Assembly (NCBI GenBank): GCA_001774105.1
Contig: MEYT01000012.1
Location: forward strand, 1 to 32,838
Length of the DNA stretch: 32,838 nucleotides
From: Candidatus Azambacteria bacterium RIFCSPLOWO2_01_FULL_46_26
GTDB taxonomy: Bacteria > Patescibacteriota > Minisyncoccia > UBA9936
Reading direction: 5' to 3'
The position numbers and the translations under genes were made by a program. Below, piece by piece: positions 7,051 to 19,271 of the stretch. The stretch's first letter is position 1; every line of letters starts with the position of its first letter. The notes under the pieces were generated by a model that ran no database searches, was not told the origin of the DNA, and was given only the letters and a program-made list of their open reading frames with translations.

Positions 7051-9132
7051 ATGAAAAAACAAATCAATAAAGAACTTATTTTTGTCCTTGTCTTAGGTCT
7101 GATAGCCGTTTTAACGCTCGGTATCGGTTATAGAACCATAATTCGTGAAGCCGCGCCGGAACCGCCGGCTGCTCCGCCCGAAATTCCTTCGGTTACTCCT
7201 CCGACGGCGACAGCGGAGAAAGGCGTCAAAAAATTCGCCTCGGAGGATGAGTTTAAGAAATATCTTCAGGAAGCGCAAGCTCAAGCCGAATATTTCGGAG
7301 GGTTCGGTTTGGGAATCGGCGGGGAGGTGATGCGCGAAATGATGCCGTCGATGGAAGCTCCCCAGATAATGGAGAAAGCCGCTCCCGCGGCCGCGCCGGA
7401 ACGGGTCTCGGAAACAACGGTTCAGGTTTCAGGGATTGACGAACCCGACATCGTTAAGACCGACGGCCAAGAAATATACTTCGCCTCCCGGTTGACGAGG
7501 ATTGTTGAGCCGATGCCTTTGATGGAGGAGGCGCCGGGAATTTCATTGCCAAAAATAATGCTTCCGATCAGAGAACAGGGAAACGTGAATGCCGTCAAAG
7601 CGTTCCCGCCGGGCGAATTGAAAAAGGACTCCCAAATTGACAAATTCGGAGACCTGCTTTTGAGCAAAAATACTTTGGTGATTTTTTCAGAAAGCAGATT
7701 TTATCCTTATTTCTATCCGTACAAAGATCAGGGAAGAAGCATTGCCGGATACGACGTCTCGGACGCGAAATCGCCGAAAAAGAAATGGGAGATCAAGCTG
7801 GACAAAAATACCCAGATCGCCGGCAGCCGGCTCTATAAAAACAAAATATATCTGGTAACCAAAAACCCCATCGCCGAATCGCGGCCATGCCCCATTCAAC
7901 CGCTAATCATGGAAGACACCCCGACAATCATTGACTGCAAAGAAATTTATCATCCGACAATACCGATTCCTTCTGACACGACTTTCACGGCATCAATCAT
8001 TGATCCGGCTTCGGGAAAGATTGAAAAAAACGTTTCTTTCGTCGGATCTTCGGCTTCTTCGGTTCTGTACGTGTCGGAAAACGCGCTTTATCTAACTTAT
8101 TCTTACAACGAAAGCGCACTCAAATTCATCGCTGATTTTTTCAAGACGAAAACGCAAGACATTGTTCCGGCTTCATTCATCCAAAAACTGGAAAAATTAT
8201 CCGGATACGACATCGGCGAAAACACCAAAATGCTGGAATTTCAGACAAACTGGCAAAAATATCTCACTTCTTTGGACGAAGACGAGCGATTGAAAATAGA
8301 AAACGAATTGTCAAACAGAATGTCGCAATACCACAAAGAACATAAACGGGAATTTGAAAAAACCGGGATTGTCAAAATAAGTTTGGACGACTTTAACGCA
8401 ATCGCGACCGGCAACGCCCCAGGCCGTCCTTTGAACCAGTTTGCGCTGGACGAATACAATAATCATTTGAGAATCGCGACGACCATCGGCCAGAGCGGCT
8501 TCGGATTTTTCGCGGGCCGCGGCGGAAGCGAAAGCGAGAATGATGTCTACGTGCTTGACGAAAAACTGAACATCCGCGGCTCGGTTCAGGGGCTTGGCTT
8601 GACCGAAAGAATTTATTCGGTTCGCTTCATTGAAGACAAGGGCTATGTCGTAACTTTCAGGCAAACCGATCCGCTTTACGTGCTTGATCTTTCCGATCCG
8701 GCAAAACCGGAATTGAAAGGCGAACTTAAAATCCCGGGCTATTCCGCCTATCTAAATCCGATCACCAAAGATAAAATTCTTGGATTCGGAAAAGAAGGCA
8801 GCCAGGTAAAAATTTCGCTTTTTGACGTTTCCCAGCCGACGCAACCGGCGGAAAAAGACAAGTATATTCTTGATGAATACTGGTCCGAGGTGCTTTCAAC
8901 ACACCACGCTTTTTTGCTTGATAAAAAGCATGAGATTTTCTTCCTGCCGGGAGGCAAAGGCGGCTATGTCTTTTCGTACAAGAACGACAAGCTTGAACTG
9001 CGCAAAGCAATCAGCGGCGTTTCCGCCAAAAGAGCCGTCTACATCAACGATTATTTGTACATCATCGCCGAGGACAAAATCACGGTGCTGAACGAAATTG
9101 ACTGGGAAAAAATCAACGAACTGGAACTTTGA
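7051..9132 (+). CDS. Secreted or membrane-anchored beta-propeller domain protein (PF09826-type)
   Basis: N-terminal TM/signal anchor 'ELIFVLVLGLIAVLTLGIGY', Pro/Ala linker, hallmark 'TTVQVSGIDEPDIVKTDGQEIYFAS', then propeller-like repeats. Confidence 0.85.
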   Translation: MKKQINKELIFVLVLGLIAVLTLGIGYRTIIREAAPEPPAAPPEIPSVTPPTATAEKGVKKFASEDEFKKYLQEAQAQAEYFGGFGLGIGGEVMREMMPSMEAPQIMEKAAPAAAPERVSETTVQVSGIDEPDIVKTDGQEIYFASRLTRIVEPMPLMEEAPGISLPKIMLPIREQGNVNAVKAFPPGELKKDSQIDKFGDLLLSKNTLVIFSESRFYPYFYPYKDQGRSIAGYDVSDAKSPKKKWEIKLDKNTQIAGSRLYKNKIYLVTKNPIAESRPCPIQPLIMEDTPTIIDCKEIYHPTIPIPSDTTFTASIIDPASGKIEKNVSFVGSSASSVLYVSENALYLTYSYNESALKFIADFFKTKTQDIVPASFIQKLEKLSGYDIGENTKMLEFQTNWQKYLTSLDEDERLKIENELSNRMSQYHKEHKREFEKTGIVKISLDDFNAIATGNAPGRPLNQFALDEYNNHLRIATTIGQSGFGFFAGRGGSESENDVYVLDEKLNIRGSVQGLGLTERIYSVRFIEDKGYVVTFRQTDPLYVLDLSDPAKPELKGELKIPGYSAYLNPITKDKILGFGKEGSQVKISLFDVSQPTQPAEKDKYILDEYWSEVLSTHHAFLLDKKHEIFFLPGGKGGYVFSYKNDKLELRKAISGVSAKRAVYINDYLYIIAEDKITVLNEIDWEKINELEL

Positions 9133-9330: not shown

Positions 9331-10323
9331 TTAATAACTTGTCGTCGGAGTCAAGTGGTGCGGTCCGCACAATCCGCCGGCCAAAGACCAGATTGCGTAA
9401 TCAAGCCGGAGCATATTGATCTTTTCGTCTCTTATCTTATTTATTTCCTCCATCAACTTTAACATCGCCGTCACCGTTTGAGCGCGAATCTCGATCTCTT
9501 CGTTGCTGCCCAGTTGAATAATCTTCCGATTCCGGATTTTCTCTTCAAGGGAATCCGCGTACTTTAAAATTCCCATTGCTTTAAGCGCGAGCGGAAGCCG
9601 ATAATCGGCCGGCGGGCCAAGCTCGTCGGCGTCTTTGATAAGACACAGTTTTCCGCCGGAACTTAAAGCCCTGCCCTGATAAATCATTGCGCAAAGCCGG
9701 GCTTTCTTGTTAAAGCGCAAAATCTTTCCGCTGCCGGAATGATACGACGAATCCCAATACCCTAAAAAATCCGTAAACAGCCGTTCAATGATTCCGATAT
9801 CCATCACGCTTCGGGAAAAAGCCCTGAAATCGGCTTTTTTGAATAAATTCAAAAAATCGCCGTCATACCTTTCAAGCAAAACATTGCCGAGCTGCCGTAA
9901 AATTTCCAAACGCTCTTTCAATAGCGGAATGGGATTTGTGCCGCGAAAAATGTATTCCAATTCCGCCCGGTCAAGCAATCTCAAATATCTGGCGTTCAGA
10001 ACTGGAATTCCTTCTTCAATTGCCCGCACAAAAGAGGCGCCCAGCGCCAAAGAACCCTGAAATTTCCGGCCTTTCCAGTCAATTTCAAACTTTGAATGGG
10101 GCGGCTTAAAATTGGTGAAAGCAAAATTGACGGAAGTCACCACGCCGACAAATTGAACAAATTTTTCGTCGTCAATCGCCGGCAAAACGTCGGGGAAGCG
10201 CCAGTCGGGAACGGTCAGCGGTAATTTCGCCACCCCCCCGGCGATTCTTTTCAGCGCGGCTTCGTCAATAAAGACAAATTCCGGATTGGAGTAAATGCAC
10301 ATAAAACCTTCCAAAGGCCTCAT
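9331..10323 (-). CDS. Queuosine salvage protein family (Q_salvage/DUF2419, QNG1-like queuosine-5'-phosphate N-glycosylase)
   Basis: Motifs recalled from the family: 'VVTSVNFAFTN', 'WKGRKFQGSLALGASFVRAIEEGIPVLNARYL', 'YIFRGTNPIPLLKERLEILRQLGNVLLERYDGDF', 'FNKKARLCAMIYQ', 'DADELGPPADYRLPLALKAMGILKYADSLEEKI', 'GSNEEIEIRAQTVTAMLKLMEEIN', 'LDYAIWSL...PHH'. SD GGAGG 7 nt upstream of ATG at 10323. Confidence 0.8.
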   Translation of the reverse strand: MRPLEGFMCIYSNPEFVFIDEAALKRIAGGVAKLPLTVPDWRFPDVLPAIDDEKFVQFVGVVTSVNFAFTNFKPPHSKFEIDWKGRKFQGSLALGASFVRAIEEGIPVLNARYLRLLDRAELEYIFRGTNPIPLLKERLEILRQLGNVLLERYDGDFLNLFKKADFRAFSRSVMDIGIIERLFTDFLGYWDSSYHSGSGKILRFNKKARLCAMIYQGRALSSGGKLCLIKDADELGPPADYRLPLALKAMGILKYADSLEEKIRNRKIIQLGSNEEIEIRAQTVTAMLKLMEEINKIRDEKINMLRLDYAIWSLAGGLCGPHHLTPTTSY

Positions 10324-10367
10324 TCCTCATCCTCCGTATAATTTTTAATGAAACTCAAAGAAAAATA

Positions 10368-10390: not shown

Positions 10391-10412
10391 ATTTAACCCA
10401 ATATTGTACACT
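10384..10412 (+). promoter_or_regulatory. Promoter for rel
   Basis: TTGTCA (10384-10389)-N17-TACACT (10407-10412), 9 nt before ATG at 10422. Confidence 0.75.
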
Positions 10413-10421
10413 ATAACCGCC

Positions 10422-12140
10422 ATGACCATTGAATCTCTGATTCAGAATCTCAAAAATAAAGACGTCAAACAGGCCGATTTGGATTTAATCAACCGGGCTT
10501 ATCTTACCGCGGAGCAGGCGCACCGCGGTCAAAAAAGATTTTCCGGAGAGGATTATATCATCCATCCCTTAAAAACGGCCGATTTTTTGACCCGGCTTAA
10601 TTTTATCGACGCTCCGACGATTGCCGCAGCACTGTTGCACGATACGGTTGAAGATACCGGCCTTCCGCTTGAAAAAATCGAAAAGGATTTCGGCCCCGAA
10701 GTCGCGTTTTTAATCAACGGAATCACAAAACTCGGCAAAATCAAATATCAAGGCGTTGAACGGCGCGTGGAAAATCTGAGAAAAATGTTTTTGGCGATGG
10801 CCGAAGACATCAGGGTGATCCTGATTAAACTTGCCGACCGCCATCACAACATGCAAACCCTGGATTTTGTCCGGAAAGAAAAACAGAAAAGAATCGCCCT
10901 TGAAACATTGGAAATTTACACGCCGATCGCCTATCGGCTCGGAATGGGCGAACTGAAAGGACAGCTTGAAGACCTTGCTTTTCCCTACGCCTATCCGGAC
11001 GAACATCGCTGGCTGATGACTAACATCAAGGAAAAATACCAGCAGCGTCAGGAGTATTTAAAGAAAGTGGTTCCGATGCTGGAACGGGAACTGAAAAAAG
11101 AAAACATAAACGCCGAGGGAATAAATCTGAGGGCGAAACATTATTACAGTTTATATCAAAAACTCCTGAGGCACGAAATGAATCTTGAAAAAATTTACGA
11201 CCTTGCCGCGCTTAGAATAGTTGTTTCAAACATTGACCAGTGCTACGGCGCGCTCGGAGTCGTTCATAAACTCTGGCGTCCGTTGCCGGACAAAATCAAG
11301 GACTACATCGCCCTGCCCAAACCAAACGGTTATCAAAGCATTCACACGACTGTTTTTTGTCTGGACGACAAAATCACCGAATTTCAGATACGGACGAAAC
11401 AAATGCATGAAATCGCCGAGAACGGCATTGCCGCGCACTGGGCCTACTCCGAAGCCGGCAAACCGGACGAAGGAGCGCGGCTTGACGAAAAAAAATTCGG
11501 CTGGGTCCAGCAACTGAGGGAATGGCAGGCCGAAGTCAGCGGAACCGAAGAGTTTCTTGAATCGCTGAAAATAGATTTTTTCAAAAACCGGATTTTCGTC
11601 CTGACCCCGAAAGGCGACGTCATTGACCTGCCGCAGGACGCGACGCCGGTTGACTTCGCTTACCATATTCACTCGGAAATCGGCGAGCAATGCGCCGGCG
11701 CCAAAGTAAACGGAAAAATAGTCCCTCTCAATACTCCCCTGCAAAACAGCGACATTGTCGAAATTCTCATTCAAAAAAACAAAAAACCATCCGAAGGATG
11801 GCTTGATTTCATCAAAACAACTTACGCCAAGAACAAAGTTAAAAAACATTTCCAGAAAAAATTGCATTCTTTCGCCGATCGAACGGTAAAAAACCAGACG
11901 CCCCAAAAAGCTGAAATCAGAATCGTGAGCAGCGACCGCGTCGGCCTTTTGAAAGACATTTCTTCTATATTAAGTTCTCAAAACATCAACATCATAACGC
12001 TGAACACCGACAGCACCGACAATCCGTACCCCGACATCTTCATCACAATCAGCGCCAAGGACAAGCTGAACATCAACCGCCTGGTGCTGAAACTCAAAGA
12101 AGTGAAAGGAGTCGCCGAGGTGGGCTGCAAACTGCTTTAA
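10422..12140 (+). CDS. rel: Bifunctional (p)ppGpp synthetase/hydrolase, RelA/SpoT family
   Basis: HD domain 'HRGQKRFSGEDYIIHPLKTA..LLHDTVEDT', synthetase 'YDLAALRIVV..CYGALGVVHKLWRPLPDKIKDYIALPKPNGYQSIHTTV', TGS 'FVLTPKGDVIDLPQDATPVDFAYHIHSEIG', C-terminal ACT. The ORF-track start (10404) lies inside the promoter; ATG 10422 preferred. Confidence 0.96.
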   Translation: MTIESLIQNLKNKDVKQADLDLINRAYLTAEQAHRGQKRFSGEDYIIHPLKTADFLTRLNFIDAPTIAAALLHDTVEDTGLPLEKIEKDFGPEVAFLINGITKLGKIKYQGVERRVENLRKMFLAMAEDIRVILIKLADRHHNMQTLDFVRKEKQKRIALETLEIYTPIAYRLGMGELKGQLEDLAFPYAYPDEHRWLMTNIKEKYQQRQEYLKKVVPMLERELKKENINAEGINLRAKHYYSLYQKLLRHEMNLEKIYDLAALRIVVSNIDQCYGALGVVHKLWRPLPDKIKDYIALPKPNGYQSIHTTVFCLDDKITEFQIRTKQMHEIAENGIAAHWAYSEAGKPDEGARLDEKKFGWVQQLREWQAEVSGTEEFLESLKIDFFKNRIFVLTPKGDVIDLPQDATPVDFAYHIHSEIGEQCAGAKVNGKIVPLNTPLQNSDIVEILIQKNKKPSEGWLDFIKTTYAKNKVKKHFQKKLHSFADRTVKNQTPQKAEIRIVSSDRVGLLKDISSILSSQNINIITLNTDSTDNPYPDIFITISAKDKLNINRLVLKLKEVKGVAEVGCKLL

Positions 12141-18759: not shown

Positions 18760-19233
18760 TTATTTCGCCAACGATTTTTCGTAAATCATCACTTCTTTGA
18801 TCTGCTGTTCCGTCAGAACCTGGCCGAAAGCCGGCATTGATGAAGGCCTGCCCAGTCCAATGTATCCGCCGGCGCGAATCACCTTTAGGGTCGCTTCGTC
18901 ATTATTGTACGTCATCCACGCGCTCTTTATCGTGAAATTCAAAGGCCGCGGAGACAAGCCAGAGCTGGCCGGTCCGTCGCCCATTCCCTTCTCTCCGTGG
19001 CAAACCGTGCAATACGCCATAAAAACCGTTTTTCCGCGCTCAATTTCCGGAACGCCTACCGCGGGTTGATTAACGGCCGTAGAAGGCGCGGCCGGCGCGG
19101 ATGTTTCGGCACCGCCTTTGTTGTAGCCCGGAAATAAAGCCGTGACTATTAAAAATATAACCGCGGCTTTAATAAAAATGGCCAAAACAACATAAGACCT
19201 GATTTTTAAATCTTCGCCCAATTTTTTACCCAT
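18760..19233 (-). CDS. Membrane-anchored mono-haem c-type cytochrome
   Basis: N-terminal TM 'SYVVLAIFIKAAVIFLIVTALF', haem motif CTVCH in 'GKTVFMAYCTVCHGEKGMGDGPASSGLSPRPLNF', distal Met 'RPSSMPAFGQVLTEQQIKEVMIY'. SD AGGAGAGAAGG before ATG 19233; TTGACG-N17-TATTCT upstream. Confidence 0.9.
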   Translation of the reverse strand: MGKKLGEDLKIRSYVVLAIFIKAAVIFLIVTALFPGYNKGGAETSAPAAPSTAVNQPAVGVPEIERGKTVFMAYCTVCHGEKGMGDGPASSGLSPRPLNFTIKSAWMTYNNDEATLKVIRAGGYIGLGRPSSMPAFGQVLTEQQIKEVMIYEKSLAK

Positions 19234-19271
19234 CAACCTTCTCTCCTGTTAAAGAACGGTGATTTTAAAAT

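What the first reader, a model, noticed from the sequence alone, without database searches (positions are those of the whole stretch)
9331..10323. Queuosine-salvage (QNG1/DUF2419-type) enzyme in a probable CPR genome
The protein matches the Q_salvage family along most of its length. The characterised eukaryotic members are queuosine-5'-phosphate N-glycosylases that release queuine. An ultra-reduced, probably episymbiotic bacterium carrying this gene would imply scavenging of queuine from host or community tRNA turnover rather than de novo preQ1 synthesis. No tgt, que genes or queuine transporter appear in the window.
Basis: partly seen in the sequence, partly recalled or inferred. Interest (0 to 1): 0.68.

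Follow-up and report, generated by a model that had tools for sequence, protein, structure and literature searches.

The report
Queuine-salvage enzyme in a Parcubacteria genome
This very small, probably host-dependent bacterium carries a gene for an enzyme (Qng1) that frees the tRNA building block queuine from nucleotide debris, and its genome also has the enzyme that puts such a base into tRNA but none of the tested genes for making it, so it probably lives on queuine recycled from its neighbours.

Summary
In detail: window 9331-10323, on the MINUS strand, encodes a 330-aa protein with a strong Q_salvage match (E 1.4e-48). Its predicted structure superposes on crystallised Qng1 (TM 0.88-0.92), and K199, D231, D298 and W302 of the Sphaerobacter enzyme are all kept. 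The genome is Parcubacteria-type (727 kb). [quoted passage not shown] No QueA, QueG, QueH, QueC, QPTR or QueT was found. The Tgt pocket loop lacks the valine thought to exclude queuine. The best reading is direct queuine salvage, Qng1 followed by Tgt, as in eukaryotes. In five relatives of the same class, and one in another class, qng1 lies directly beside tgt. Two points complicate it. The window's gene belongs to a divergent clade sitting at an old topA-qng1-relA locus, with changed residues near the active site. And 7 of the 16 clade genomes checked have no tgt, yet six of those keep the catalytic residues. The importer is unknown. It is a new member of a known family, with an open question about what the tgt-less members do.

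The parts
9331..10323 (-). qng1: queuosine-5'-phosphate N-glycosylase-type (Q_salvage, DUF2419) protein, 330 aa
   Evidence: Pfam PF10343 E 1.4e-48; PDB StQng1 E 7e-37; AlphaFold model pLDDT 91.2, TM 0.88-0.92 to StQng1
10331..10335 (-). GGAGG ribosome-binding site, 7 bases before the ATG
   Evidence: read directly from the sequence
9706..9708 (-). codon of K206, equivalent of StQng1 K199 (K199C was crystallised with queuosine)
   Evidence: alignment; PDB titles
9604..9606 (-). codon of D240, equivalent of StQng1 D231 (D231N was crystallised with Q-5'-MP)
   Evidence: alignment; PDB titles
9400..9402 (-). codon of D308, equivalent of active-site D298
   Evidence: alignment; D298 named as active-site residue in PMC11592518
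9388..9390 (-). codon of W312, equivalent of active-site W302
   Evidence: alignment; PMC11592518
4735..6963 (+). topA (DNA topoisomerase I): left flank of the conserved qng1 locus
   Evidence: PF01131 E 3e-127; shared locus
7051..9132 (+). beta-propeller protein between topA and qng1 (also beside qng1 in G072)
   Evidence: PF09826 E 9e-112
10404..12140 (+). relA/spoT: right flank of the conserved qng1 locus
   Evidence: PF04607 E 6e-38, HD_4, TGS, ACT

Best explanation
The gene encodes a Qng1-type N-glycosylase that hydrolyses queuosine-5'-monophosphate (or queuosine) to queuine and ribose-5-phosphate. Because the genome has tgt but no enzymes found for making or finishing queuosine, the freed queuine is most likely inserted directly at G34 of tRNA-Asp, -Asn, -His and -Tyr by its own Tgt. 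This is direct salvage as in eukaryotes, with the precursor taken up by an unidentified route from host or community RNA debris. Shown here: family, fold, catalytic residues, presence of tgt and G34 tRNAs, absence of the tested que genes, tgt-qng1 gene pairs in relatives. Inferred: the exact substrate, Tgt's preference for queuine, and uptake.
For: Q_salvage match E 1.4e-48. Structure model close to StQng1 and human QNG1, TM 0.83-0.92. K/D/D/W quartet kept. Full-length tgt in G000 at C11:16257-17393, TIGR00430 equivalog 522 bits, with the catalytic Asp motifs TDSGG and FDC. No QueA, QueH, QueG or QueC. tRNA-Asp GTC, Asn GTT, His GTG and Tyr GTA cut by a contig end. tgt and qng1 are immediate neighbours in G014, G044, G188, G232 (twice) and G208 and in G319 of another class; under a rough chance model (2 in 800 per genome, relatedness ignored) that is about 6e-10. 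Tgt pocket loop GG-SLG lacks the valine of the preQ1-type GGLAVG, which PMC11570991 proposes excludes queuine. Loops of type GGx[LM]G occur in 17 of 19 Qng1+ tgt+ genomes against 7 of 29 Qng1- tgt+ ones (Fisher 2e-5; family level 0.0016; motif chosen after looking).
Against: Among 55 relatives, Qng1 does not predict tgt: 6 of 9 Qng1+ and 30 of 46 Qng1- genomes have tgt. Eight of 30 Q_salvage+ genomes have no tgt, including 3 of 3 in family f36 and 2 of 2 in f43. Positions near the catalytic Asp and one otherwise invariant Trp differ from the characterised enzymes (W76 to T70, F229 to P238, Q236 to L245). No QPTR or QueT importer. The G000 motif GGSLG is not exactly the published queuine motif GG[LS][AS]G. 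The genome is 94% complete, so any single absence could be a gap.
Confidence: 0.72

Rival explanations
1. A related nucleotide N-glycosylase of the same family whose main job in this Parcubacteria clade is not feeding Tgt: it cleaves Q-5'-MP or another 7-deazaguanine or modified nucleotide from scavenged RNA, to recover ribose-5-phosphate or clear a dead-end nucleotide. Any use by Tgt would be secondary.
For: 7 of 16 genomes of the window's clade lack tgt, and six of these keep the K/D/D/W quartet. Clade-wide pocket changes at W76, T227, F229, Q236. The locus topA-qng1-relA is old and not linked to tgt in most clade members.
Against: G014, in the same clade, has qng1 directly beside tgt. The one tgt-less member that has lost K and W (G072) looks like decay after tgt loss. 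Draft genomes may miss tgt. Fold and catalytic residues match Qng1 closely.
Confidence: 0.18
2. The enzyme makes queuine but the Tgt of this genome still takes preQ1, so tRNA carries preQ1 from uptake and the qng1 gene serves another purpose or an indirect (QueL-like) route.
For: Bartonella has a tgt-only genome whose Tgt prefers preQ1 (PMC11570991). G233 has a St-like Qng1 with a preQ1-type Tgt loop.
Against: The G000 Tgt lacks the blocking valine and has a shortened loop. No QPTR or QueT preQ1 importer was found in G000. QueL was not tested.
Confidence: 0.08
3. Binning or assembly artefact: the gene does not belong to a Parcubacteria genome.
For: The genome is a 50-contig draft.
Against: The same gene order topA-(propeller)-qng1-relA is found in other Parcubacteria genomes, including named Terrybacteria and Patescibacteria records. 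GC content of the gene is that of its surroundings.
Confidence: 0.02

Closest known systems
Qng1 / DUF2419 of Sphaerobacter thermophilus (PDB 7u07, 7u91, 7ulc, 7u5a)
   Same: Whole-length fold (TM 0.88-0.92, rmsd about 2 A), 30% identity, K199/D231/D298/W302 all kept
   Different: Different deep clade (100/100 split); invariant W76 is T70; T227, F229 and Q236 next to the catalytic D231 are changed
Human QNG1 (PDB 7ugk)
   Same: Same fold (TM 0.83-0.87, 27% identity) and catalytic quartet
   Different: As above; human cells use a two-subunit TGT, here a bacterial single-chain Tgt
Chlamydia trachomatis direct queuine salvage (Tgt + QPTR)
   Same: tgt without the genes that make queuosine (PMC11570991)
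   Different: Chlamydia imports queuine with QPTR; here Qng1 is present and QPTR is not found
Clostridioides difficile QueK/QueL indirect salvage
   Same: Also frees queuine from a queuosine derivative (PMC11130926)
   Different: QueK belongs to an unrelated protein family and QueL remakes preQ1; QueK and QueL were not searched here

Membership tests
Qng1 (Q_salvage, PF10343) | Pfam Q_salvage match above the curated cut-off over most of the length | tested here: met
   166 bits against 25, residues 49-315 of 330
Qng1 (Q_salvage, PF10343) | Qng1 fold (DNA-glycosylase-like) | tested here: met
   AlphaFold pLDDT 91.2; TM 0.88-0.92 to all StQng1 structures; next are DNA glycosylases at E 0.025 or worse
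Qng1 (Q_salvage, PF10343) | Catalytic/active-site residues K199, D231, D298, W302 | tested here: met
   K206, D240, D308, W312 by alignment
Qng1 (Q_salvage, PF10343) | Base- and phosphate-binding residues as in the characterised enzymes | tested here: inconclusive
   Residues invariant in the St/human-like clade differ (W76 to T, Q236 to L; F229, invariant in 11 of 12, to P); their contact role could not be checked (structure paper not held, coordinates not available)
Qng1 (Q_salvage, PF10343) | Hydrolysis of queuosine-5'-monophosphate to queuine | not testable with these tools
   needs an enzyme assay
Direct queuine salvage pathway (tgt only) | Bacterial tgt present | tested here: met
   G000:C11:16257-17393, 498.8 bits; TIGR00430 522 bits
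Direct queuine salvage pathway (tgt only) | No enzymes that make or finish queuosine | tested here: met
   QueA, QueH, QueG, QueC not found in G000, 94% complete; QueD, QueE, QueF not tested
Direct queuine salvage pathway (tgt only) | Tgt pocket adapted to queuine (GG[LS][AS]G instead of GGLAVG) | tested here: inconclusive
   GG-SLG: valine absent and loop shortened, but not the exact published motif
Direct queuine salvage pathway (tgt only) | tRNAs with GUN anticodons and G34 | tested here: met
   Asp GTC, Asn GTT, His GTG; Tyr GTA at a contig end
Chlamydia-type salvage (Tgt + QPTR) or ECF-QueT-type salvage | Importer of family QPTR or QueT | tested here: not met
   no PF02592 or PF06177 in G000; so it is not filed under these import systems; UPS, MFS and HlyIII-type transporters not tested

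The most novel reading that the evidence does not exclude
The Parcubacteria clade at the topA-relA locus is a variant nucleotide glycosylase with a remodelled pocket that has a role independent of tRNA queuosine, for instance breaking down 7-deazaguanine or other modified nucleotides from host RNA to regain ribose phosphate, and is kept under selection even where tgt has been lost.
Probability: 0.22. Interest if true: 0.7.

Novelty: new member of a known kind. Interest (0 to 1): 0.45.

Why it matters
[quoted passage not shown] No paper in the held library mentions queuosine together with Parcubacteria or Patescibacteria, and the single hit with Candidate Phyla Radiation is about DPANN archaea. 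In the 55-genome sample of this class most genomes have tgt (36) while QueA is rare (3), so host-derived queuine, or an unfinished modification, may be common in these tiny genomes. That would make a translation-level dependence on the host testable by measuring Q in their tRNA and by finding the missing importer. The tgt-less members raise the question of what Qng1 does without Tgt.

Tried and rejected
A scan of genome contigs with the single protein found no relative, and the 12-row alignment was not conserved enough to use; a four-row alignment gave three named Parcubacteria-type loci. Co-occurrence of Qng1 with tgt as support: rejected, there is none in the sample. Short pocket loop in general as a queuine marker: only p = 0.065; the finer GGx[LM]G motif is significant but was chosen after looking. 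The Fisher value printed used wrong counts and is replaced. QueC-like hits in relatives mostly match one short N-terminal stretch of much longer ORFs and are probably other ATP-pyrophosphatases; none is in G000. Structure prediction of the four-cysteine relatives failed (pLDDT 40) and is not used. A transporter gene shared by the tgt-qng1 neighbourhoods was looked for by eye: none is common to them. The Qng1 structure paper and the queuine-lyase paper are not held.

Full report
OBSERVATION. The finding's interval holds one long ORF on the minus strand, 10323 down to 9331, 330 aa; the plus strand of the interval is broken by stops. The ATG is preceded by GGAGG at seven bases. Pfam Q_salvage PF10343 matches residues 49-315 at E 1.4e-48, 166 bits against a cut-off of 25. 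Against solved structures the best sequence matches are Sphaerobacter thermophilus Qng1 (E 7e-37) and human QNG1 (E 8e-33). An AlphaFold model from 12 relatives has mean pLDDT 91.2 and pTM 0.90; it superposes on all StQng1 structures with TM 0.88-0.92 and rmsd 1.9-2.2 A, and the next hits, DNA glycosylases, are at E 0.025 or worse.

ACTIVE SITE. PDB titles show that K199C of StQng1 was crystallised with queuosine and D231N with queuosine-5'-monophosphate. PMC11592518 names D298 and W302 as active-site residues. By alignment these are K206, D240, D308 and W312 of the window protein, all conserved.

THE ORGANISM AND ITS PATHWAY. The window is contig C12 of a 727-kb, 50-contig genome, 94% complete. 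The nearest named records with this protein are Patescibacteria, Parcubacteria GWA2_38_13b and Terrybacteria, so the CPR guess is right; that the class is Paceibacteria is inferred from those names. The genome has one tgt at C11:16257-17393 (498.8 bits; equivalog TIGR00430 522 bits). It has tRNA-Asp GTC, tRNA-Asn GTT and tRNA-His GTG, and a tRNA-Tyr with GTA cut by the start of contig C48 (read by eye). Families not found in it: QueA, QueH, QueG, QueC, QPTR/Vut_1, QueT. QueD, QueE, QueF, QueK, QueL and other candidate transporters were not tested. By the logic of PMC11570991 and PMC11130926 such a genome is predicted to salvage queuine directly.

TGT POCKET. PMC11570991 reports GGLAVG in preQ1-type and GG[LS][AS]G in queuine-type bacterial Tgt, with the valine proposed to block queuine. 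The G000 Tgt has GG-SLG-KSKED: one residue shorter, no valine. In the class sample GGV[AS]VG, GG-EFG (two of the three QueA+ genomes) and GGx[LM]G loops can be told apart. GGx[LM]G occurs in 17 of 19 genomes with true Qng1 and tgt and in 7 of 29 with tgt but no Qng1 (Fisher 2e-5; 11 of 13 against 7 of 25 at family level, p 0.0016). The motif was picked after looking and the test ignores the tree, so this is support, not proof.

GENE NEIGHBOURS. tgt and qng1 are adjacent, often touching, in G014, G044, G188, G208 and twice in G232, and in G319 of another class (L155). Under a simple 2-in-800 chance per genome this is about 6e-10 (relatedness ignored). The window's own gene sits elsewhere: between topA (plus a beta-propeller gene) and relA/spoT. 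The same locus is found in G008, G049, G051, G040, G241, G071 and G085 with both flanks, in the named records L125 and L127, in G072 with relA and the propeller gene, and in G093 and G063 with the relA side visible. This places the gene firmly in the Parcubacteria chromosome and argues for old vertical inheritance with many losses: 30 of 286 class genomes have a Q_salvage match, three of them only the four-cysteine relative, and 17 of 380 across the phylum match the 12-row alignment.

TWO CLADES AND TGT-LESS MEMBERS. A maximum-likelihood tree splits the family. One clade holds StQng1, human QNG1 and the tgt-adjacent forms of G044, G188, G208 and G232. The other holds the window protein, the other topA-relA forms and G014, which lies beside tgt; two four-cysteine rows also fall there on a very long branch and may be misplaced. 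At positions invariant or nearly so in the first clade the second differs: W76 (T70 in the window), F229 (P238), Q236 (L245) and T227 (G236); the last three are within five residues of the catalytic D231. Eight of the 30 Q_salvage+ genomes have no tgt: G008, G040, G051, G063, G072, G085, G131, G138. Seven of these are among the 16 four-cysteine-free rows of the window's clade; the other nine (G000, G014, G019, G049, G071, G093, G134, G152, G241) have tgt. All three f36 genomes (95-97% complete) and both f43 genomes (91-98%) lack it, which is unlikely to be missing assembly alone. Six of the seven keep K, D, D and W; G072 has lost K and W, as expected of decay. So either these cells use queuine in another way or the clade has another substrate.

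MECHANISM, STEP BY STEP. (a) Uptake of queuosine, its phosphates or RNA fragments: inferred, importer unknown. (b) Qng1 cleaves Q-5'-MP to queuine and ribose-5-phosphate: inferred from family, fold and catalytic residues. (c) Tgt exchanges G34 for queuine in four tRNAs: inferred from tgt, pocket loop and tRNAs. (d) No further tailoring is needed: follows from the absence of QueA, QueG and QueH.

VERDICT. The finding is a real Qng1 family member in a Parcubacteria genome with a tgt-only queuosine pathway. It is a new member of a known family. Literature: searches for queuosine with Patescibacteria and with Parcubacteria gave no paper; with Candidate Phyla Radiation one paper on DPANN archaea. 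Only open-licence papers are held, so prior mention elsewhere cannot be excluded.

Noticed in passing
L009:1054-2028 (-), L053:1087-2064 (-), L054:1354-2337 (+): A divergent Q_salvage-like protein in G036, G159 and G060: weak Pfam match over the N-terminal half only, catalytic K/D/D/W kept, and an invariant C-X7-C-X2-C-X5-C near the C-terminus resembling the iron-sulphur loop of endonuclease III/MutY (resemblance recalled, not tested). These genomes have preQ1-type Tgt loops; G036 also has QPTR. Structure prediction failed.
   Followed up: partly
window 18763-19236 (-): A single small cytochrome c protein (PF00034 E 3e-10, CTVCH motif) in a Parcubacteria genome, a group usually held to lack respiratory chains.
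   Followed up: no
window 7051-9132 (+): A beta-propeller protein (PF09826) with a hydrophobic N-terminus lies between topA and qng1; a relative also lies beside qng1 in G072 (L041).
   Followed up: partly
G004, G039, G050 (L033, L032, L031): Three relatives have QueA but neither QueG nor QueH was found, so they may stop at epoxyqueuosine or use an unknown reductase.
   Followed up: no
G232:C1:569125-571108 and 595796-597708 (L084, L083): One 680-kb single-contig genome carries two separate tgt-qng1 gene pairs about 25 kb apart.
   Followed up: no
L041:1318-2337 (+), genome G072: A Qng1 relative in a tgt-less genome with the catalytic Lys changed to Asn and the active-site Trp to Leu: possible decay after tgt loss.
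   Followed up: partly
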